Source: Tomocerus qinae
Lineage: Eukaryota > Arthropoda > Collembola > Entomobryomorpha > Tomoceridae
Direction of reading: 5' to 3'
Assembly: GCA_020055645.1 (NCBI GenBank)
Contig: CM034546.1
Span: 73,718,001-73,782,000 of the forward strand
DNA: 64,000 nucleotides
A model generated the notes under the pieces. That model worked only from the letters and a program-made list of their open reading frames with translations. It did no database searches and was not told where the DNA came from. Shown here one piece after another: positions 12,899-45,957 of this stretch; positions within the stretch are counted from its first letter, which is position 1; the number at the start of each line of letters is the position of its first letter. Position numbers and translations under genes: made by a program.

Positions 12899-14100
12899 AT
12901 GTCGTATAAGGTAACTACCGCATCAAAAGATGCTGTTAAATTTGGCGAGGGTCCTATTTGGGACACCCGCAGAAAGAAATTGACTTTCGTCGACGCCTTA
13001 GGTAAATCCATTGTAATATTGGACCCAAAAACTCAGGTTACTTCTCAGAAACCAATTCCAGGTTTGGAAAGTGCTTCGATGGTCAGTATAGCAATACCGT
13101 GTGCTAATTCAACCGACGGTGATACAACTGAAAATCCCAATTTTTTGGTAGCAGCTCAAGGAAAACTAATTAAATATAACTGGGAAACCGAAAAGACAAA
13201 CTTACTTTTCGACTGCAATAACAAAGAAGTTGAGCATAAAAAGAATTCATTTTTCAATGATGGAAAATGTGATGTCAAAGGCCGTTTGTGGATTGGTTCC
13301 TTCATTCCTTCCAAATCTACCTTCTTTGAACCTAATGCAGGTAAAATATAGCGCTTTAATTGTCTTCCTCGTTTTTCTCTTGAATTCAAATGTATAATTT
13401 AAGTGTAGGTGAATTCCATAGGTTCGAAAATGTTGAAGGACGATTGAAGGAAACTATTCATGCTAGAGAATACTCTCTTCCAAATGGTTTAGCATGGAAT
13501 AAGGAAAATACGATTCTTTACCACGTGGATTTGGGAAAAAACCTTATCAATGCATATGACTTTGATTCAGAAAATGGGACTTTAGGTAAAATTCAACTTC
13601 GGTTTTAAAATTTTTTAAATAAAGGCGATACATAATGTTTTATTTTTAATTATGTAGCAAACCCACGTGTATTTTTCGATTTCGAACAAATAAAGGACAT
13701 TAAAGGCCCACCCGATGGTATGGTAACTGATGCATCTGGAAATGTATGGGTAGCTTGCTATAAAGGGGGCTCTATTGTTAAAGTTGATGGAATCACAGGT
13801 ACTGAAAGATTAAAATTAAATAACAACATCTTATAAAAATGTCGATAATTAAACTACAAAATAAATGTTTGTATATTAGGAAAATTGCTGACAACAATTA
13901 ATTTTCCAGTTGATAACACAACGTCATTATGTTTCGGTGGCGACAATTATGAGTCTTTGTTTGTGACAACTACGTCATTGGAATTGGAAGGCGACGGAAG
14001 TCTCGTGAAAGGTCAACCTGATGCCGGAAAAATATTTTGCGTCACGGAACCAAAAGATAATTCTTTTAAAGGATTTGAGCATTATTACGCTCATATTTAA
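12899..14100 (+). CDS. Regucalcin/SMP-30-like protein 1, four exons
   Basis: Exons 12899-13340, 13409-13585, 13658-13798 and 13880-14100, all with GT-AG borders and phase 1, give 326 aa. This is the SMP-30/gluconolactonase/regucalcin beta-propeller family: cytosolic metal-dependent lactone hydrolases or Ca2+-binding proteins. The expected metal-ligand positions are visible: the Glu in FGEGPIWD near residue 18, the Asn in NGLAWN, and the Asp in PDGMVTDASGNVWVA. The NDGKCD segment is also typical. A nearly identical gene follows at 14928 with the same intron positions. The substrate cannot be read from the sequence. In hexapods, related genes include regucalcin, Dca-like cold-response proteins and luciferin-regenerating-enzyme-like proteins. 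The exon-2 acceptor (AAGTGTAG|GT) was chosen because it keeps phase and matches the sister gene. Confidence 0.9.
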
Positions 14101-14927: not shown

Positions 14928-16153
14928 ATGGCATATAAGCTAACTACAGTTTCAAAAGAAGCCGTAAATTTTGGCGAGGGACCTATTTGGGACACCCGCA
15001 GAAAGAAATTGACTTTCGTGGACCTTTTTGACAGGTCAATTGGAATGTTGGATCCAAAAACTCAGGTCATCTCTCAGAAACCAATAGTAGGATTGGAAAG
15101 TGCTTCGATGGTCAGTGTTGCAATTCCGTGTGCTAATTCACCTGGCGACATTACAACCGAGAATCCCAATTTTTTGGTAGCATCTCCAGGAAAACTAATT
15201 AAATATAACTGGGACACCGAAAAGTCAAATATAGTTTTTGATTATGGCAACGAAGAGGTCAATTTCAATGATGGAAAATGTGATGCTAAAGGCCGGTTAT
15301 GGGTTGGTTCATTCACTCCTTCCAAAACTACAATTTTTGAACAAGATGCAGGTGAACTATAACCTTTTGAATTTCATTTCTTCATTCTTCTTCAAATTCA
15401 TTATTCATTTCAAAACTCGAATCTATAAATTTGTGTTGTAAATAGGTACATTCCATAGGTTCGAAAATGTTGAAGGACATTTGAAGGAAACTGTCCATGC
15501 AAGAAAATATAATCTTCCGAATGGTTTAGCATGGAATCGGGAGAATACGATTCTTTTCCATGTGGACTTTGGCAAAAGTCTTATCAATGTTTATGACTTT
15601 GATTCAGAAAACGGAACTTTAGGTAAATTTGAAACAATTTTTCGTCAACTAGAAAAACGTCATAATCTTTTATTTTGAATTATGTAGCAAACCCACGTGT
15701 ATTCTTCGATTTCAAACAAAATAAAGACATTAAAGGCGAACCTGATGGAATGGTAACTGATGCATCTGGAAATCTATGGGTAGCTTGCTGGAAAGGAGGT
15801 TCTATCATTAAAATTGACGGCGTCACAGGTACGCAACTAAAATATTAATCGGGAATCAATAAAGGTATTCTACAGATTAAATATTTTATTAAGATTTTTT
15901 AAAACTGTTATAATTATATAAAAGTGAATGTGTATTAGGGCAATTATTGACAACGATAACATTTCCTGTGGATAACACAACTTCACTGTGCTTCGGTGGC
16001 GAGGATTATGAGTCTTTGTTTGTGACAACCACGTTCATGGAACCGGATAAGAATCCCGTGAAAGGACAACCTGATGCTGGAAAGATATTTTGTGTCACGC
16101 AACCAAAAGATAATTCTTTTAAGGGGTTTGAGCATTACTACGCTAATATTTAA
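14928..16153 (+). CDS. Regucalcin/SMP-30-like protein 2, four exons
   Basis: Exons 14928-15351, 15446-15622, 15688-15828 and 15939-16153 give 318 aa. Exons 2 (177 nt) and 3 (141 nt) have exactly the lengths of those in gene 1, and all introns fall at the same codons, so this is a recent tandem duplicate. It retains FGEGPIWD, NGLAWN and PDGMVTDASGNLWVA. Exon 1 is 18 nt shorter because of small changes around EEVNFNDGKCD and CANSPGD, and exon 4 is 6 nt shorter in an acidic/Gly loop. Substitutions are mostly conservative and the frame is open throughout, so both copies look functional. Function is as for gene 1. Confidence 0.9.
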
Positions 16154-29158: not shown

Positions 29159-32100
29159 ATGCATCCTTATAAAGATAGCAGTGCATTTGGAAGGACAAGT
29201 CGCAGCTGTTTGCTATGTTTTGATCAGCACATCGTGGCGATTCCAAACAATGGCAGTAAATTATTTGATAATTGTTGTAAATATTTGCACTCTGCCATAA
29301 TCCGGGGAACAGAAGCAGGAGATGATCTTTCGTTTGAAAAGCAAAATACATCATTTTGTGAAAAGTGTCTGAAATCGGCAGTTGAACTACTAGGACTGAC
29401 AGAGCAGCTGGAGTATTGTCAAAGGAGCATCAGTGAATTAATTTTTATGTTCTCCCTCAGAATTCTTCATCGTAGGAAAAGGTATTCTCCGACTGTAAAC
29501 CCGAATAAAATAGAACAAGTTGACACTTCAGGACTTCCAGATTTGGACAACGATTTTGAATTGGCTGCCGTTGTTTGCCCATTTCAAGAGTCGACTACTG
29601 AGTGCCCTCAACAATTGCCTCTTGCTCAGGAAATAGAAGAAAATCTTCATGAAATAGAAGACCCTGTCGACTACTTCGACCCAATCGAGCCTGAGATTAC
29701 TATCACCGAAGTGAAGATAGAAACTGACATCAACGATGAAGCTTATTGCGATAATTCATTTAAAATGGAAGATATAACAGTATCAACTTCGTCATGTCTA
29801 CAAATGTCTACCGTTGAAGCTAGTAAAAACGTGATCATATCAAAAGAACCTGCAGGAAATTCCCTCCCTTTTGTCAGACTGGAACGTAAGAAAATTTACA
29901 AAAAAACAAATAAAATTTATTTATTTGTTGGATTATTTTTAATTATTTTAATTAACAGGATTAAATCTGAAAAATATGTTCACTGGAGGGCAAAACAAAT
30001 TATCAAAAGGTATAAAAATTGGCAACATCAAATCGCTAAATCCTCAAGGTTTACAAACCGAAAGGTAAGCCTAATTTTTACCCAACTTATGTACTATTTG
30101 TTATCAGAGTTGTGACTGAAATTATTATTTATTACAGCATAGCAAATGGTTTTCCCAAAATATATATGAATCCTTTAATGACGCCGAAGGTTGATCCAAT
30201 TTCATTGTCAGTGACAGAGGTCAGTGATTTTGTACGAGAAGAAGTTAAGAATGCAGAAAGGAAACGCTACAATGGTGACTTACAGGATGAACCATACGAC
30301 CCAAAATGTGGCAATAATCACGAAAATCGATTTAAGTGCAAAAAGTGCAAAAAGACTTTTCGATTCAAATGCATCTTGGTCAATCACGAGAAAACTCACA
30401 AAGGAGATAGACCTTTTCAATGTGACGTCTGTAGTAAGACCTTCAAAAACAAACACACTTTGGCCAACCACGGCCGCATCCACACTGGAGAAAAGCCTTA
30501 CGAGTGTGAAGTCTGTCACAAACAGTTCACTTTTCAAAGCTCTCTTATCACCCACAAATTTACACACACTGGAGAGAAACGTTTCCAGTGCAATATCTGC
30601 AAAAGAAGGTTAATTATCCTTTCAAACGATCTAATTATAGTTGCAATATTGACACTGTCATTATATTTTAGTTCTCCATTTATTTATTTTATTTAATCAA
30701 ACATTTGGTGTTTGAAAAGTTGCCCAAATAGATACGGCGTAATTAATTTCTGTTGAGCAGGTTGGAAATAACAAAAAGGTTATATTATAGCTAGATTGTA
30801 ATTTTTGATTTTAATATTTCTCTGTGGATTCCTATCCATTTTTAAATGGGTTTACTTTTACGTATAAAAACTCATTTCTGCCACACACTGGAGGTTCACA
30901 AGGCTCCATTTGGTTTAAAAGTATTTTTGTTATTTTGCAATCGCAAAAACATTTAAAGTTAAACCCCAAAATATAATTTTTTCGAAAAATGGACACTATG
31001 ACCTTACAGGTCAAAATTGTAGCAAGTCTGAGCCTTCTAACTCAACAATGTGTTTATTCTTTTTGGGATAATTAATTAGAATGTCCAGATTGATTGAAAA
31101 TTAGGTGAGTTATTCATGATTAGATTAGACAGAGTAGGAAAACGCATACAAAACGTTCAACGTTTGACAAATTTTAATGTTAATCGATTTTATACTAATT
31201 TACATGGTAATAATTATTAAAATCCTAAGCCGTGAAGATTAGGACTCGCAGAAGAGGTGCATCGCATGTTATATGCGCTGCTAAGATGTTTTAGTAGTAT
31301 TTTTTTATTTTTACGTGTAATAATGAGCAAACGCAATTTAACTTCATATACATACCATTAAAAATGAGATTAATTTTCCTTTTCCCATATGAATGTTACA
31401 CAAAGTAATTTAATGTTCAATGTTTAAAATTAGATTTTTTAGTATTGATTTATTTCGTTTTCTGTTACCCATATTAAATATGCTGAAAATGTTTCTAGAT
31501 TTACCCAAAAGAGCGCTTTACTCACTCACTACAAAGTGCACTCTGTGGACAAGAAGCGGAAGACCAGACAGTTGAAGAACAAGGTTAACACCCCTAACAG
31601 TGACCCAGAAGACTTGAAATGCAATATTTGTGGGAAAATGTTGGGGAACAAGCAGAGTTTGATCAGGCACCAATATTGTCACACAATGCCCCACAAATGT
31701 CAAGTATGTGGGAAGCGATTTTTGTTAAAAGAGGAGCTGGACAGTCACTCGACTATGCACGAGGGAGAAAAGTTGCAATGCCCAGTGTGTAACAAGATGT
31801 TTGCCTCTAAAACAACTTTGACTATCCATCAGAACATCCACACAGGTGAAAAACCTTACCAATGCTCTATCTGCTTCAAGTCATTTCGGCAATATTCCAG
31901 TCTGTACAGCCATCGCAAAATCCACAACAAACCGCATAAGTGTCAAGAATGCAATAAGCGATTCACGCTAAAAAGCGGCCTGGAGGTTCACATGGCTAAA
32001 CACACTTCTACTAGTACTACTACTAGTAGTACTGCACCTTTCACTAGTACTTGGGACAGCGAAAGGTTCAAATGTCAAATATGTGGCAAAGTGTTGACGA

Positions 32101-32525
32101 CTAAGCAGTCCCTGCAGATTCATAGCAGTATCCACACGGGAGTAAAGCCTTTTCAATGCACCGTCTGCTTCAAATCCTTTAGACAACCCTCTAATCTTCA
32201 AACCCACATGAAGGTTCATTCTAAATCACACAAATGTAACTTCTGCAGAAAACGATTTGCACATGAAACTCAACTGGACAGGCACATGTCTCGACACAAA
32301 GGGGCAAAGCAGCAGCAGCAGCTGCACAAATGCGATTTTTGTCCCTACTCAACAGTTTATCCTACCAATTTGAAATCCCACATGATGAGAAAACACTCGG
32401 AAAACAAATGTCGTTGCAGAGACTGTGGAAAAATTTTTGCAACCGCTGAGCAATTAAAAGGACACTACAAAAGAATTCATTTCGCCATCGACTACACGGA
32501 CGACTGTGCTGTTCCAATTTCGTAA
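29159..32525 (+). CDS. ZAD-domain C2H2 zinc-finger protein with 14 fingers, four exons
   Basis: Exons 29159-29885, 29959-30064, 30138-30608 and 31499-32525 give 776 aa with phases closing at all three introns. The ATG at 29159 follows a probable acceptor. Residues ~10-85 contain CLLC ... CEKC, the paired CxxC layout of the ZAD (zinc-finger-associated) dimerisation domain of arthropod transcription factors. An acidic linker follows. Then come four C2H2 fingers in exon 3 (the fourth is split by intron 3 and is completed by FTQKSALLTH in exon 4) and ten more in exon 4, joined by HTGEKP-type linkers. The protein is expected to be nuclear and to bind DNA sequence-specifically; the target is unknown. 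A small Thr/Ser run separates fingers 9 and 10. The first intron (73 nt) is AT-rich and happens to be open in frame, so a naive reading would wrongly include it. Confidence 0.9.
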
Positions 32526-34046: not shown

Positions 34047-34620
34047 TGTATATGTTGTAGGCGGAGAGGGAAAGGTGACTGGGAGGGATATAATGTCCCT
34101 CTCCGCCTAGACAGGGAGAGATAGCTCTGTACCGCTAGCGGTACCGAGCCATGAGGTTTCCGACTGGGAGGGATATGTCGTAAAGGATTGATATGAATGA
34201 TTCTATGTGTATAAGTGCTACAAATGTCGCAGAATTTAGGTAACTCTTACATTTATTCATTGTAATCATTATTTTTTAACTTATATGTAATAATTGTGTT
34301 GAAAATTTGGGGTTCTTCCTCCCTATCATATTAATTGTACTGCACTGATTAGAATAATTCATTATTCAAAAAATTCTAAATGGGCCATCTCCTATAACTT
34401 TTTAACCCTAGTAATATTCATAAATATTAAGTATATTGCACTTTTTATATCAATCATAATGTCCGAGTATCACTTTCAGCAAGGTTTACATTTAGTATAA
34501 AGAGCTATAAGCTGAATTACATAGCGGTTGCTGTTATGTGGGAATTCAGGGAAGTGAGTTCCATTTACAGCTTTTTCAATAAAGACAAAATGGAATTTCC
34601 ACTGTATTTTTTTAGATTTC

Positions 34621-35223: not shown

Positions 35224-35603
35224 ACTCCTGGCTTTGGAAAAAATATCAATTAATAATTATTATAGCAGCGTAACATGCTTAACTATTTGACTGTCAATCT
35301 TGACTTAATAATTTATGATTTAATAATGACTGACACAAAAAGTGCAATATACTTAATATTTATGACTATTATAGAAAATAATGATTACAATGAATAAATG
35401 TAAGAGTAACCTAAAATCTGCGACATTTGTAGCACTTATACACATAGAATCATTCATATCAATCCTTTACGACATATCCCTCCCAGTCGGAAACCTCATG
35501 GCTCGGTACCGCTAGCGGTACAGAGCTATCTCTCCCTGTCTAGGCGGAGAGGGACATTATATCCCTCTCAGTCACCTTTCCCTCTCCGCCTACAACATAT
35601 ACA

Positions 35604-36108: not shown

Positions 36109-39100
36109 CTATGGATCCGGTTTTTCAAACACTTCTTTCTCAATTTCAAAAGCCTCATCGTGCATGCCCAAACCTTTCAATGTCATGATTTTCCAATAGT
36201 TTGCCCTTAAAACATCAGGATGATTGACTTCTTGAACATTTTTTCGGATTTCCAATACTTCATTGAACAAAAGAAGAGCCTCGTCATATTTCTTCTGGCG
36301 ATACTTAATGCAGCCGATATTGTGTTTTGTATTCAATGTACTTGGATCTTCGTTTCCCATGTTTCTGTCTCCAGCCGCTAGTACTTCTTGGTACATTAAA
36401 AATGCTTGTTCGTACTTTCCTTCCTCATTCAATATCTTAGCTATGTTGTTTTGCAAAGTCAATGTCTCTTGATGTTCTTTGCCAAATCGATTTATTCTCT
36501 TTTCTAATGTGTATTTGAACCAATCCATAGCTTGCTTGTAATGTTTCTGCATACCTAGTGCCATTCCAATTGCATTAGCAGTGTATAAAGTGTGGTCGTC
36601 ATCTTCCCCCAGAAGCTGCATTTGTCTTTCATAAACTTCGGTCATTAAATTGTAGCTTTCTTCGTATTGTCCTTGTTTTTGAAAAATTACTCCCTTCCAT
36701 CCTAACATCCGAATCGTCCAACGATTTTTTTCCCCAAGAGTCGCCGCCATCATCTTTAGAGCATCGCAAGAGAATTCAAAAGCTTCGGAGTAGCATTTAC
36801 TGGAGTAAAACGTCATTGCAATTACATCAGGAAGTTCTTGGTAACTTTCTATTAGTATTTGATGTTTTCTTGTGTTTTCCCAAATCGACTTGACATGACT
36901 CATTTCTTCCAAAGACAAATCTCCAGCTTTTAATTTCGTTTGAGTGATGCCCATAAGACTGTCCAAAGTATCTATCAATTTGTTCTGTTCTTCCAAATCT
37001 GTCCGAATAACTTCTTGTACTAATCGGTGGATGAAAATTAAATCTTCTGTTCCTGCCGTAACACGTTTACAAATTGAATAGTGGTGAAGAATTTGCAAGA
37101 CGTCTCTGTTGACCTGATCTTCAGTCAGCTTATTTAAAAACTTTATAGAAATGTTGTCGGGGGCTAGGAACGAAATAATATTTAAAACTTTCATGGCTGT
37201 TGACCCCAACTTTGGAATGTTTTTAATTTCCCCTAGTGTGATTTTCCATGCTAAGTAAGTCGTGTGAGAAATTCCATTTTGGTCGTCAATTGGATGTTTT
37301 AAGAGTCGCATTGCTTCTCCTTCATTATTGATCAAATCTGTGTACATCTGCAAAGCACATTCAACTGACGAGTGCTGAATGTTATCTTCTATGAAACTTA
37401 CTGCTTGTTGCAGAGCCAACGGAAAATACGCTAGCCTTTGGGATATGGTTTTCAGTTGAGCACACACATCTGATTTATTGGCATCAACTTTTAAGGATTT
37501 AGAAATTAATTCAACTGCAACATCTTCATTAAAAACCTCCAGGGGAATGTGCTCTACTTTGTTTCCAAATACATGATAAGTTGGACGATGCCGAGAAGTA
37601 ATCAAAACGAATGGTCTCAATTCGGAAGGAGGTCTCGTAGATGATGACACAAAATATTTAAGAACTAACCTTTTCGAAGACTGCTGAGTGGTAAATTCTT
37701 CTCTGGATAGTTCCAAATTGTCCAAAATTATTAGCCACTTTTTGCCCCCCAATTTTGCATAAATATCCATCACCAGATTTTGAAGTCCTTTTTCTTTTTC
37801 AGAATTGTCCAATACAGATATATTTAATTTCTTGGCCAATTTTCTAATGGATTCCAATTGAGAAAACATGGTTGCCGCATTAATCCAGATGCAATTACCT
37901 CCGATTTCTTCATAAAACTTTTTTGCATATCGTTTTGCAATTTCACTTTTACCGACTCCTCCTAAACCGCTGATGACGACGAAAGTCAATCGTTTTTTGG
38001 TAAAGCATTCTTCCCGGTAATCATCAATAATTTTAATTTCATTATCTCTTCCGACATAAAACTGAGTTGTGGAATGGATATCAAACCATATGTTTTCATT
38101 GTTAAAGACTTGAGTACTAAGGTTTTCTCTGAGTATCAGTTTATTGGCCGAACTTTCATTTCCTGTATTCTGGAGGCTCTCAGTAAGTATTTGAAAAACC
38201 TTGTCATCCTTTTTCGTCAAAGTTAAGTATAACGTTGTGTTTTTATCATATTCCGTTTGCTGGCATTTCTTAAAATCATGAAATAAATATTTTCAACATT
38301 TTGTTAATCTGAATTATTATTAATTATTCATTTCTCCAAGATGTGATATCATGGCTAGTCGAAAAGATGGTTAACCCTACAGTAACCTGTACCCAGGAGT
38401 TGGCAATAGGCCCGTTTTTGCGGCCTATGTTCACTTCTTATAACAGAACAGAACAGATACCCTCGTTACAGGGCAGGAATAATCAAGTTTTAACAGGGTT
38501 TTTTTTACCAAATATGTTTTTACCTGTCTTGAAAAGCCTACCGGGTAAAGTTTTAGTTACCGGGCAGCAAAACATTTTCTGTATGCCTATATTATCTATG
38601 TCTCAATTAAGGCTTTGGAGTTGGGATAAGTGAGTGCTGACAAGGCGGAAACCAGAGTTAAGAGTTTGAAGAAATTGTAAATATGAACATTAAATTAAAT
38701 ATTGTAACATAGAGAAGTGACATAACTCGAATGACTATATGACATGACGTATCTCACATTGATAATTACTGATTACATTGATTATGATTATAAGTTTAAT
38801 TGTAATGAGTTTAATAATTTTATTACAGAGATGACATCGTGGATAGTTGCTCGTCCTTGTAACTTGATTTTATACTATCAGTTTAGTTTCATTAAAATCG
38901 TTTGACGATAGATAATCAACCGTTTGAACATTTTTTCACTACTTAGCATAATAATGATATCCTGCATATATAGTAAAACATAATAAGCTTTAATAATAAA
39001 TTATGACAAGGGTACCAAAATTTGCTTAAAAGTAAAGTGAATAGCTAAATGACTAAATATTATGTACAATGCATAATAATCCTCAACAAAATATTTATTT

Positions 39101-40298
39101 CTTATTCTAATATAGACTGAGATAGCAATAAATTTATCAATCTATCTATCTATGAATCCATCTATGTCTGGTGTGCCTAGGGATCCTGCATATATTACGT
39201 AACGCAAAAAACCGCTTAACCCATGTGTAACGTAAGTGCTGACTGTTACACTTTTGGGTACCTCCTCCTCCCATTATTTGCACACCTAATATACGCAAAC
39301 TTCTTAAAAGCAAAGTGCACATGCCGACTTCCTCTCAACCACCGTAATGTATTATTGTTATTTCCAATAGATCACCCTAATTGTCATAGCAACCTCAGTT
39401 CTGTTTTAGGAAAGTGGAGGAAAGTTTGTAATGAATTTATAAATTCAGCTAATGGTTGCTGGATGCCCACCCTTCTAAATTTTGCCAAATTTTATTGGGA
39501 GCCTAGTAATTTACAAAATTTTCAAATTCTTAAGATATTTCATATCCAGTTGCCACATTTTTTCAAATTTAAGAATTCTAAAGTTGATTAATCGCTTTCC
39601 ATGAACTTTTCCTTTAATGAATGCAAAATCCATTGACATACTTCCTTTAACTCGACACAATTTAGCATAGGTAACTCGTTTTGCCATGAGATTTTTATTT
39701 AAAGTAGCAAAACACTTATGTCTCAATCAAAACCTTGTTTAAAAAACAATACAACGCTTTAAATTTCTTTAATAATTTTATAGTAGGTAAAGCTTAAAAA
39801 TAATGTAAAACTCATTGACACATTTCTATAAATTGACATACCGATATTACAATAGAAATGGCAGTTTAAAATGCATTGCGGGAACAAGCATTTCAAAATT
39901 TCAAGAAATCTATTATTTTACCTTAAATTATTACATTAGAAGCAAAAAATAATGTACTAATACAAAAATCTACTATATGTAGAGACGTTATTTATCAGAT
40001 AAAATAAGGATTTATATTATTGACGAGAAAATAATAACAAGAAATAAAATAAAAGTGTAATAAATAACTATCAGTACAGTACAGACCATCAAGCACATTC
40101 AGCAACTCACTGAGCCCAACTTTATAATAGGGACTAGAACATGAGTCATGGGAAATGTGTACTTACAATTGTCTGCACTTCAGGCTCCACCAGAACACCT
40201 TTTGATAAAAGAGTAATTAATAATTGATTCAAATTAGTTGTATTTTCTGCCAGATAGTTCAAATTCGGAGTAATACGATTTTCTAACTTGTCACTCAT
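36109..40298 (-). CDS. CARD-NB-ARC-TPR protein (Apaf-1/NLR-like layout), two exons
   Basis: Exon 1 is 40298-40167 (44 codons, donor ATT|GTAAGT) and exon 2 is 38268-36109, joined in phase 0: 763 aa. Residues ~1-90 read as a CARD-like death fold: short amphipathic helices, LLSKGVLVEPEVQTI, then KKDDKVFQILTESLQ. An NB-ARC ATPase follows: VGRDNE at about 115-121, P-loop GLGGVGKSE at about 145-152, Walker B WLIILDN near 222-228, an Arg sensor (VLITSR) near 265-270, and YFPLALQQA near 325-333 as the GxP-like helix. The C-terminal ~250 residues hold about five ~42-aa TPRs of kinesin-light-chain/nephrocystin type. CARD plus NB-ARC suggests a ligand-triggered oligomeric scaffold, as in Apaf-1; TPRs replace WD40 repeats. 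A role in death or immune signalling is inferred. Exon 1 is far upstream because a transposable element sits in the intron. Confidence 0.8.
38614..40123. mobile_element. Terminal-inverted-repeat element, copy 2, in the intron of the CARD-NB-ARC gene
   Basis: Left end GGAGTTGGGATAAGTGAGTG and right end CAACTCACTGAGCCCAACTT are inverted. Ends and inner words (AAAACTCATTGACACATTTC, CTCAATCAAAACCTTG) match copy 1 at 24521-26807, but only about one degenerate set of the minisatellite modules is present. A fragment of repeat family A is embedded at about 39125-39330. Confidence 0.7.
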
Positions 40299-44130: not shown

Positions 44131-45957
44131 CTTCCCGAACTGTTCCAGAGATGCCTGGACACCGGCCAAGTTCCTCTTGATTGGGGCCTAACCGAAATTG
44201 TCCCTATATACAAAAAAGGCCCTAGAGAAAATCCGGAAAACCATAGACCTATCGCTCTCATGCAAACAACACTCAAACTCTTTACGTCTGTGTTAGCACA
44301 GCGACTGTCCTCGTGGGCGATCTACAACAACAAACTGTCCGACTATCAAGCGGCCTACAAGAAAGGAAGTGGATGCGAAGATCACATATTTGCACTTAAC
44401 ACCGCCATTCAAATACAGCTAAACAAAAAAGGTGGAAAGCTCTACCTTCTGTTTGCTGACCTGTCCAACGCTTTCGGCTGCGTCCCTCATGATTTGCTAT
44501 GGCAAAAACTCTATGACTACGGACTCTCCTCAAAATTCGTGCAAGTCGTCCAATCAATATATTCCACTACAAAAGCATGCGTCCGTACCCCAACTGGTCA
44601 CACCAACTCCTTCCCTATACTGCGCTCATGCCCCCAAGGCGAGACACTGTCGCCCAACCTATTCTGTATCTTCATTAACGACATAATAAAGAAAATGGAA
44701 GACAGTGAAACATCGGGAATTCGGATCCTCAACCACATCGAAAAAATACAACTAATAATACATATCCTACTATTTTCCGACGACAAGGTTCTCCTAGCTC
44801 CCAGCAAGCTTCAGCTTCAAAGAAAAATTAATATACTTAAATCCTTCTTGGAAGAGAACCAACTTAATATCAATCTAGGAAAAACGAATATATTAGTAGT
44901 CTCAAAAACTGGACGAACTGTAAAATCGGAGAAATTCTTCTGGGGTGAAGAAAAGATTTCTATCGTAAAATCTTACACCTATCTGGGTGTCATTTTTACT
45001 TCGTCCGGTCTCTTCAACCAACAAGCTACATCGGCAGTTAGTAAAGGAAAAAATGCCTCCGCGTCCGTCCTATCTTTAGTGTCTAAAGGTAGAATAGTGA
45101 CCGCCGACTCAAGGGAAGAGCTTTTTGAATTCATAGCTAACTCCACAGTTTTGTATAGCTCATCTATTTGGGGCCTAACACATTCAGAAACATTAGAGCA
45201 AGTCCCTCAATTTTTTTCCAAAAGATCCTTAAAACTACCTATCACTACACCTAAATACTTTGTTCGTCTGGAAACTGGTATCACCCATATAAAATTATGT
45301 ATATTTAAGTATTTTATTAATTTTTGGATTAGAATTCTAAAAAAGGAAAATAATTCTCTCGTTAAATCTTGTTACTATCAGATACGAAATCTTAACACAG
45401 TTGATATAAGATATAACTGGGCAGCTCAGGCTAGGCAGCTACTTGCTGAAATAGAGATGGAACACTTGTGGGACAGAGACAACCTAGAAGAAATCTTAGA
45501 AAATCGCTGTAACTTAATAGAAAAGTTTAAGGCTCGCCTCCATGAGACCGACCTAATGAGTGTTACCTTGTCCAACAACCACGGCCACTATAAATACCTA
45601 AAAATTTCGATTGGTAGAGAAAATTATATTTCATGTAATCTGCCCAATACCGTTACATCTATCCTAGCCCAGCTGAGACTAAACAGAAGCCAAATGTACC
45701 ATAGAGGTAAAAATATAGAAATCACTTCATGTAAATACTGCTTCAATGGCAATGTTGACTGGTATCATTTCTTTTATACCTGTAAAGAATTAAATGAATT
45801 AAGAGAAAAATACGATATACTATTATTTTCTGAATGCTGTGTAACTGAAGAAAATTTTTTGCAAATAACATTTTATAATAATGAAACTGCTGCTCAATAT
45901 TTCAAACTGTACAACTTTGTCGTAACTATTCTAGCAAACTCCGGAACGAATGTATAA
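44131..45957 (+). pseudogene. LINE A ORF2, 3' part (reverse transcriptase and zinc knuckle)
   Basis: Open from 44131 to the stop at 45957. RT blocks in order: NHRPIALMQTTLKLFTSV, LLFADLSNAFGCVPH (motif A with catalytic Asp), SCPQGETLSPNLFCIFIND, and LLFSDDKVLLA (motif C, FSDD in place of the usual YADD or FADD). The C-terminal CKYCFNGNVDWYHFFYTC is a CX2CX8HX4C zinc knuckle. The segment itself has no stops, so LINE A was recently active and was broken mainly by 5' truncation and the LINE B insertion. Clade not assigned; Jockey/I/R1-like is possible. Confidence 0.85.

What the first reader, a model, noticed from the sequence alone, without database searches (positions are those of the whole stretch)
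36109..40298. CARD-NB-ARC-TPR protein: an Apaf-1/NLR-like layout hidden by a transposon-filled intron
The long exon alone shows NB-ARC plus kinesin-light-chain-type TPRs. A 44-codon upstream exon (40298-40167) joins in phase 0 and completes a CARD-like fold. This gives CARD-NB-ARC-TPR, with TPRs in place of Apaf-1's WD40 repeats. Seen directly: ATG, splice borders, phase, P-loop, Walker B, Arg sensor and TPR periodicity. Inferred: the CARD call, which rests on helix pattern and end motifs, and any role in cell-death or innate immune signalling. Gene finders would probably miss exon 1.
Basis: partly seen in the sequence, partly recalled or inferred. Interest (0 to 1): 0.75.

Follow-up and report, generated by a model that had tools for sequence, protein, structure and literature searches.

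The report
Springtail CARD–NB-ARC–TPR receptor-like gene
This springtail gene, whose start is split by an intron, encodes a protein built like the cell-death switch Apaf-1 but with a different sensor end, and it is one of nearly two hundred related places in that genome, where insects and nematodes were reported to have a single gene of the kind.

Summary
The finding holds. Joining window 40298–40167 to 38268–36109 (minus strand, phase 0) gives 763 aa: CARD (Pfam 41–45 bits, cut-off 23.9), NB-ARC, DUF7779 and KLC-type TPRs. No RNA was available, but eight paralogues carry the same split CARD with short introns and the junction at the same column; profiles of those eight, window left out, rank the window's two halves first among 2819 six-frame segments. 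A profile of spliced CARDs matches solved CARDs.

The larger result: the host, a tomocerid springtail by COX1, has 194 merged NB-ARC loci in its assembly and 113 first-half CARD matches at E up to 10. One locus looks like the true Apaf-1. The TPR type is one clade; four more members of it show the split CARD, two of them with damaged frames. Orchesella, another springtail, has a similar protein.

NB-ARC with CARD-like and TPR ends is described in placozoans, so the layout is not new; this number in a hexapod is unexpected, and my searches found no report. Immune or death signalling is inferred. "Transposon-filled" is overstated.

The parts
40167..40298 (-). Exon 1: ATG, 44 codons, first half of the CARD; donor ATT|GTAAGT at 40166
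38269..40166 (-). Phase-0 intron, 1898 nt (67-174 nt in the eight paralogues)
39099..39510 (.). Interspersed repeat inside the intron, 71-81% identical to other copies in the genome
36109..38268 (-). Exon 2: 719 codons and stop; second CARD half, NB-ARC, winged-helix region, TPRs
38137..38268 (-). Second half of the CARD (protein residues 45-88)
37408..38001 (-). NB-ARC match (protein residues 134-331)
37945..37968 (-). P-loop GLGGVGKS
37717..37734 (-). Walker B LIILDN
   Evidence: the motif name is recalled
37591..37599 (-). TSR arginine motif
   Evidence: the motif name is recalled
36982..37212 (-). DUF7779 match (protein residues 397-473), at the winged-helix position; holds IHRLVQ (H at 37029-37027), where I would look for the MHD motif of Apaf-1 and plant NLRs (label recalled)
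36127..36978 (-). TPR array, helices 431-714 of the exon-2 model; kinesin light chain TPRs are among the closest solved folds

Best explanation
A springtail gene for a signal-transducing STAND ATPase of the Apaf-1/NLR kind. Shown: CARD at the N-terminus, NB-ARC with intact nucleotide-binding motifs, winged-helix region, C-terminal TPR array; membership in a family of 194 merged NB-ARC loci. Inferred mechanism: the TPR array holds the NB-ARC closed with ADP; a ligand or damage signal on the TPRs lets ADP go and ATP in; the NB-ARCs assemble into a ring; the clustered CARDs then recruit a CARD protein, most likely an initiator caspase, to start cell death or an immune response. The number of copies, and the looser constraint on the C-terminal end than on the NB-ARC, suggest that different copies watch for different signals.
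Against: No expression, splicing, binding or activity data. The dN/dS pairs are not independent; dN itself is higher in the C-terminal part in only 35 of 48 pairs, and in one main-clan group (7 loci) in 11 of 21, where the higher ratio comes partly from lower dS. The close TPR copies L033-L035 show no CARD in the 1.5 kb upstream that was searched. L045 has the split exon but no Pfam CARD, L048 has a stop inside its match and L059 a broken frame, and L003 and L013 have other N-termini, so CARD signalling is not universal in the family. The CARD half beside the caspase exons is just under cut-off (23.1 of 23.9 bits).
Confidence: 0.6

Rival explanations
1. Same gene and domains, but a role in ordinary developmental apoptosis, as an extra Apaf-1, rather than recognition of microbes or other non-self.
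For: The nearest solved fold over the NB-ARC is Apaf-1; caspase exons are present.
Against: A separate locus with NB-ARC plus the only APAF1_C matches, at C1:106.75 Mb, looks like the true Apaf-1. So many copies are unlike a single-copy developmental gene.
Confidence: 0.15
2. Recognition of something other than microbes: mobile elements, other individuals, or stress.
For: Fungal NLR-like genes have been linked to non-self recognition (PMC4986451, start of abstract in the listings only). Of the first 100 P-loops in coordinate order, 62 lie in C1:29-37 Mb.
Against: Nothing here points to one ligand class.
Confidence: 0.15
3. Exon 1 is a chance open stretch and the protein starts in exon 2, so there is no CARD.
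For: No RNA evidence; a TTG-started frame exists in exon 2; some relatives in the TPR clan show no CARD exon in 1.5 kb upstream.
Against: Leave-one-out profile match, same junction in paralogues, Pfam and PDB profile hits.
Confidence: 0.03
4. The NB-ARC-TPR body came from intracellular bacteria (Wolbachia-like) and was later joined to an animal CARD.
For: Many of the listed homologues are Wolbachia or Rickettsiales proteins; in the 146-row tree the TPR clan falls in an 89-row group with them and other arthropods (support 93).
Against: The direction is unknown: a paper on phage WO, for TPR and NACHT proteins, favours arthropod to phage by parsimony but keeps the reverse open (PMC5062602, passages). 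Holding both springtail clans together as one clade is not rejected (p-AU 0.67), nor with Orchesella added (0.42), so one ancestral springtail CARD-NB-ARC gene suffices.
Confidence: 0.12

Closest known systems
NACHT/NB-ARC proteins of Trichoplax sp. H2, compared there with Hydra (PMC6321704, passages)
   Same: Effectors mostly CARD or death-like, ends WD40 or TPR, never LRR; many copies (39 NB-ARC and 3 NACHT genes)
   Different: Other phylum. The passages do not spell out how many join CARD and TPR in one protein. Here a hexapod, more loci, CARD split by a conserved phase-0 intron. Sequence relation was not tested.
Apaf-1 / CED-4 / Dark
   Same: CARD, NB-ARC, winged helix; nearest solved fold over the NB-ARC
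   Different: No APAF1_C or WD40 among the families listed; TPRs instead; a separate Apaf-1-like locus is present
CED-4/Apaf-1 homologues of sea urchin, amphioxus and Nematostella in which TPRs replace WD40 (PMC2246300, passages)
   Same: TPR in place of WD40 beside NB-ARC
   Different: That paper reports single-copy Apaf-1/CED-4 in insects and nematodes; here many loci
Wolbachia/Rickettsiales NB-ARC proteins with DUF7779 and TPR or ankyrin repeats
   Same: Homologous NB-ARC body, 26-33% identity in the named rows
   Different: I saw no CARD (PF00619) in their precomputed Pfam lists; several have ankyrin repeats
Orchesella dallaii P0030 and P0086 (another springtail)
   Same: NB-ARC, DUF7779, TPR; N-termini match the spliced CARD profile (hhalign probability 81, E 1.3e-5); P0030 is modelled with six N-terminal helices
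   Different: No Pfam CARD; 25% identity; model confidence 47-76 over residues 1-80 and about 35 for the sixth helix

Membership tests
Animal NLR (strict: effector, NACHT/NB-ARC, LRR) | N-terminal death-fold effector | tested here: met
   Pfam CARD 41-45 bits; PDB profile search. By sequence only.
Animal NLR (strict: effector, NACHT/NB-ARC, LRR) | Central NACHT or NB-ARC | tested here: met
   NB-ARC 32.5 bits, cut-off 23.5
Animal NLR (strict: effector, NACHT/NB-ARC, LRR) | C-terminal leucine-rich repeats | tested here: not met
   TPR families, no LRR among the 25 of 26 families listed; TPR fold
Animal NLR (strict: effector, NACHT/NB-ARC, LRR) | Ligand-triggered oligomerisation and signalling | not testable with these tools
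   needs protein
Apaf-1 family | CARD, then NB-ARC with winged helix | tested here: met
Apaf-1 family | APAF1_C helical domain and WD40 repeats | tested here: not met
   Neither among the 25 of 26 families listed for the protein; in the genome APAF1_C was found only at C1:106754465-106754952
Apaf-1 family | Activates an initiator caspase | not testable with these tools
   caspase exons exist; binding cannot be tested
Effector-NB-ARC-TPR proteins as in Trichoplax | Death-fold effector, NB-ARC and TPR in one reading frame | tested here: met
Effector-NB-ARC-TPR proteins as in Trichoplax | Common descent with those genes | not tested
   no placozoan or cnidarian sequence was fetched by name or aligned
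Bacterial FxSxx-COOH system TPR protein (NF040586) | Score over NCBI's cut-off | tested here: not met
   208.6 bits, cut-off 300

The most novel reading that the evidence does not exclude
Springtails built an NLR-scale repertoire of CARD-bearing NB-ARC receptors, with TPR or unrecognised sensor ends, from one split-CARD ancestor that is not Apaf-1, so a large intracellular CARD-caspase recognition system exists inside the hexapods, next to an ordinary single Apaf-1.
Probability: 0.4. Interest if true: 0.85.

Novelty: new variant of a known kind. Interest (0 to 1): 0.64.

Why it matters
Two papers, seen in passages, state that Apaf-1/CED-4 is single-copy in insects and nematodes (PMC2246300, 2007) and that no NLRs had been reported in ecdysozoans (PMC3308963, 2012). 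A hexapod with 194 merged NB-ARC loci, many with CARDs, would mean that the simple picture from flies and worms does not hold for at least one early-branching hexapod line, and would give soil arthropods a candidate intracellular recognition system. NACHT-bearing proteins in arthropods are already in print (PMC5062602, passages), so the claim is about the number and layout of CARD-NB-ARC genes, not about the first STAND protein in an arthropod.

Tried and rejected
A single-sequence search of a CARD piece (93 aa, acceptor 38259) against PDB chains gave nothing; the eight-row profile gave 76 distinct sequences at E up to 10, the 60 shown being nearly all CARD proteins. BLASTP of the window CARD with the Orchesella N-terminus gave nothing (E 8.3); the profile comparison did. 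A regular expression for exon 1 upstream of L031-L060 found nothing that held up; own profiles found four. I considered that the CARD exon had been shuffled between two separate NB-ARC clans, because they are not sisters in the 146-row tree; a 37-row test does not reject one clade (p-AU 0.67), so I dropped it; the test on 146 rows did not finish. An earlier merge gave 187 loci but took in pieces without NB-ARC; the recount on NB-ARC rows alone gives 194. The window's own CARD was not folded, because the spliced protein is not letter-for-letter window DNA; exon 2 and Orchesella P0030 were folded instead, each with 22 or 23 of the 120 listed homologues. In the 50 rows listed for P0030 no match reaches its first 50 residues, so its N-terminus is not tested by fold. 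The main clan (L020, spliced) found 44 proteins, the best 31% over half the query, with no named springtail; only 7992 candidates were scored, so absence elsewhere is not shown. Paper searches: springtail/NB-ARC/CARD (807 papers with two terms, 20 listed), NB-ARC/CARD/TPR/arthropod/NLR (43, 20 listed), Folsomia candida with NB-ARC (none), Collembola with NOD-like receptor (3, unrelated by title); in what was listed I saw no report of this family. Searches looked for the host's genome paper; passages of PMC12693562 and PMC10432511 did not give its size.

Full report
What is there. The minus strand carries an ATG exon (40298-40167, 44 codons) with donor ATT|GTAAGT, a 1898-nt intron and a long exon (38268-36109) joined in phase 0; the product is 763 aa. 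Pfam finds CARD at 13-88 (41 bits, cut-off 23.9), NB-ARC at 134-331 (32.5, cut-off 23.5), DUF7779 at 397-473 (32.2, cut-off 27) and TPR_12 (97.1). A second acceptor nine bases downstream (38259) is also in phase; a piece with it scores 32.3 bits for CARD against 45.1 for a piece with 38268.

Is the split CARD real? I searched the host genome (G000, 334,443,149 bp, 115 contigs). The Pfam CARD model gave 141 matches up to E 10. By my rule (start at profile position 14 or less and end at 47 or less, or start at 34 or more) 113 are first halves, 22 second halves and 6 neither; 111 of the 113 end at positions 38-44. Most are weak one by one; their place is what counts. Of 126 NB-ARC matches, 41 have a first half within 10 kb upstream on the same strand, against 0 on the opposite strand and 3 downstream. 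For the first 100 of 191 P-loops the numbers are 43, 0 and 4. So for most NB-ARC matches no CARD half was found by Pfam at that reach. In eight paralogues with both halves in hand (L002, L007, L009, L011, L018, L020, L025, L027) the spliced CARDs align with the window at the same junction; introns are 67-174 nt. Own profiles of the halves find the second half in 24 of the first 30 NB-ARC loci and the first half upstream in 14 of 30 (only 1.5 kb was in hand); eight of these loci had trained the profiles. Among the TPR-type loci L031-L060, four carry exon 1: L042, L045, L048 and L059, with GTAAGT donors and introns of 803, 87, 566 and 331 nt. L048 has a stop inside its match and L059 a broken frame. 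With the window row left out of training, the window's exon 1 and second half rank first among 2819 segments.

Is it a CARD? Of ten pieces scanned, eight exceed Pfam's CARD cut-off: L002, L007, L009, L018, L020, L042, L048 and the window; L045 and Orchesella P0030 do not match. A profile of the window and seven paralogues (A3), searched against PDB sequences, gives CARD8 (2.7e-9), RAIDD, CED-3, Apaf-1, cIAP1, MDA5, NOD1, NLRC4, caspase-9 and Dronc among others.

The host. A COX1 copy on contig C1 is 97% identical to Tomocerus caputiviolaceus, and the next named rows are springtails.

The family. 126 NB-ARC matches were scored of 253 candidates, all 126 over cut-off. The P-loop pattern occurs 191 times, against 1 for the reversed control. 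Merging, the 100 listed P-loops, and the 45 rows and 52 rows that cover the NB-ARC gives 194 loci. This includes the Apaf-1-like locus and may include allelic or duplicate assembly copies (for example L040 and L041; C45 and C1:43.3 Mb); 91 P-loops were not listed. It counts loci, not proven genes. Two springtail clans each form one clade at support 100: the TPR clan with the window (16 rows) and a main clan (12 rows). In nine main-clan or unassigned proteins scanned, some cut off by the locus end, no C-terminal family exceeded its cut-off except DUF7779 in L010 (27.2, cut-off 27). N-termini vary: L013 has a HEPN_DZIP3 match below cut-off and L003 is unassigned. The best NB-ARC match, C1:106.75 Mb, lies beside the only APAF1_C matches and is taken as the true Apaf-1.

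Selection. dN/dS is lower in NB-ARC-WHD than in the C-terminal part in 44 of 48 pairs; in the other 4 it is undefined. The three close TPR copies L033-L035 give 0.26-0.35 against 0.77-0.93. Against a simple reading: dN alone is higher in the C-terminal part in 35 of 48 pairs, and in one main-clan group in only 11 of 21, where lower dS makes the difference. Pairs share branches, counting was Nei-Gojobori, and dS is high in many. This shows constraint on the switch and looser ends, not positive selection.

Relatives elsewhere. The spliced protein found 522 proteins, 120 listed: arthropods (Bradysia, Eufriesea, Halyomorpha, Trichonephila, Temnothorax, Bombus), two Orchesella proteins, and many Wolbachia or Rickettsiales proteins. 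P0030 of Orchesella covers the whole query at 25%. Its N-terminus and that of P0086 match the CARD profile at probability 81, E 1.3e-5, and P0030 is modelled with six N-terminal helices at pLDDT 47-76 over residues 1-80 and about 35 in the sixth helix. The trees do not reject one springtail clade for both clans, with or without Orchesella.

Mechanism. I think it most likely that this is an autoinhibited ATPase switch whose TPRs sense and whose CARD recruits a CARD partner, probably a caspase. Domains, motifs, fold and copy number are shown; sensing, oligomerisation, partner and outcome are inferred from what is known of Apaf-1, CED-4 and NLRs.

Known or new. Trichoplax has 42 NACHT/NB-ARC genes with WD40 or TPR ends and mostly CARD or death-like effectors, said to resemble Hydra (PMC6321704, passages). 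TPRs in place of WD40 are described in invertebrate CED-4/Apaf-1 homologues (PMC2246300, passages). So the layout is of a known kind; its place in a hexapod, the split CARD shared by a large family, and the copy number are what is unexpected. No report was seen in the searches named under Tried and rejected, which cover open-licence papers only and show only part of long hit lists.

Noticed in passing
G000 C1:29-37 Mb: 62 of the first 100 P-loops in coordinate order lie in this stretch, a dense NB-ARC region; the list ends at 36.97 Mb.
   Followed up: partly
G000 C1:36670928-36672268 (L061): A copy of mitochondrial COX1 covering the whole Pfam model (12 TGA read as Trp) sits on C1 inside the NB-ARC-dense region.
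   Followed up: partly
G000 C5:3614243-3618535 (L053, L056): A TPR-clan relative with open frames of over 1400 aa and many extra TPR matches in tandem.
   Followed up: no
L013, L003: NB-ARC members with other N-termini; L013 has a HEPN_DZIP3 match below cut-off.
   Followed up: no
G000 C4:17648602-17649970: A second-half CARD just under cut-off followed by caspase exons on the same strand, a candidate CARD-caspase partner.
   Followed up: no
window 34135-34269 (-) and 35381-35515 (+): Nearly the same 44-aa open frame in inverted orientation about 1.1 kb apart, just downstream of the gene; looks like the ends of a mobile element.
   Followed up: no
window 44260-45957 (+): Long open frame with reverse transcriptase RVT_1 (98.2 bits), LINE-like; upstream of the gene.
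   Followed up: partly
window 12899-13351 and 14928-15362 (+): Two similar exons; the first matches SMP-30/gluconolactonase (64.8 bits), the second was compared only by eye.
   Followed up: partly
window 31536-32525 (+): C2H2 zinc-finger protein exon.
   Followed up: partly
table: Wolbachia and Rickettsiales NB-ARC proteins with TPR or ankyrin repeats are close relatives of arthropod proteins; direction of transfer open.
   Followed up: partly
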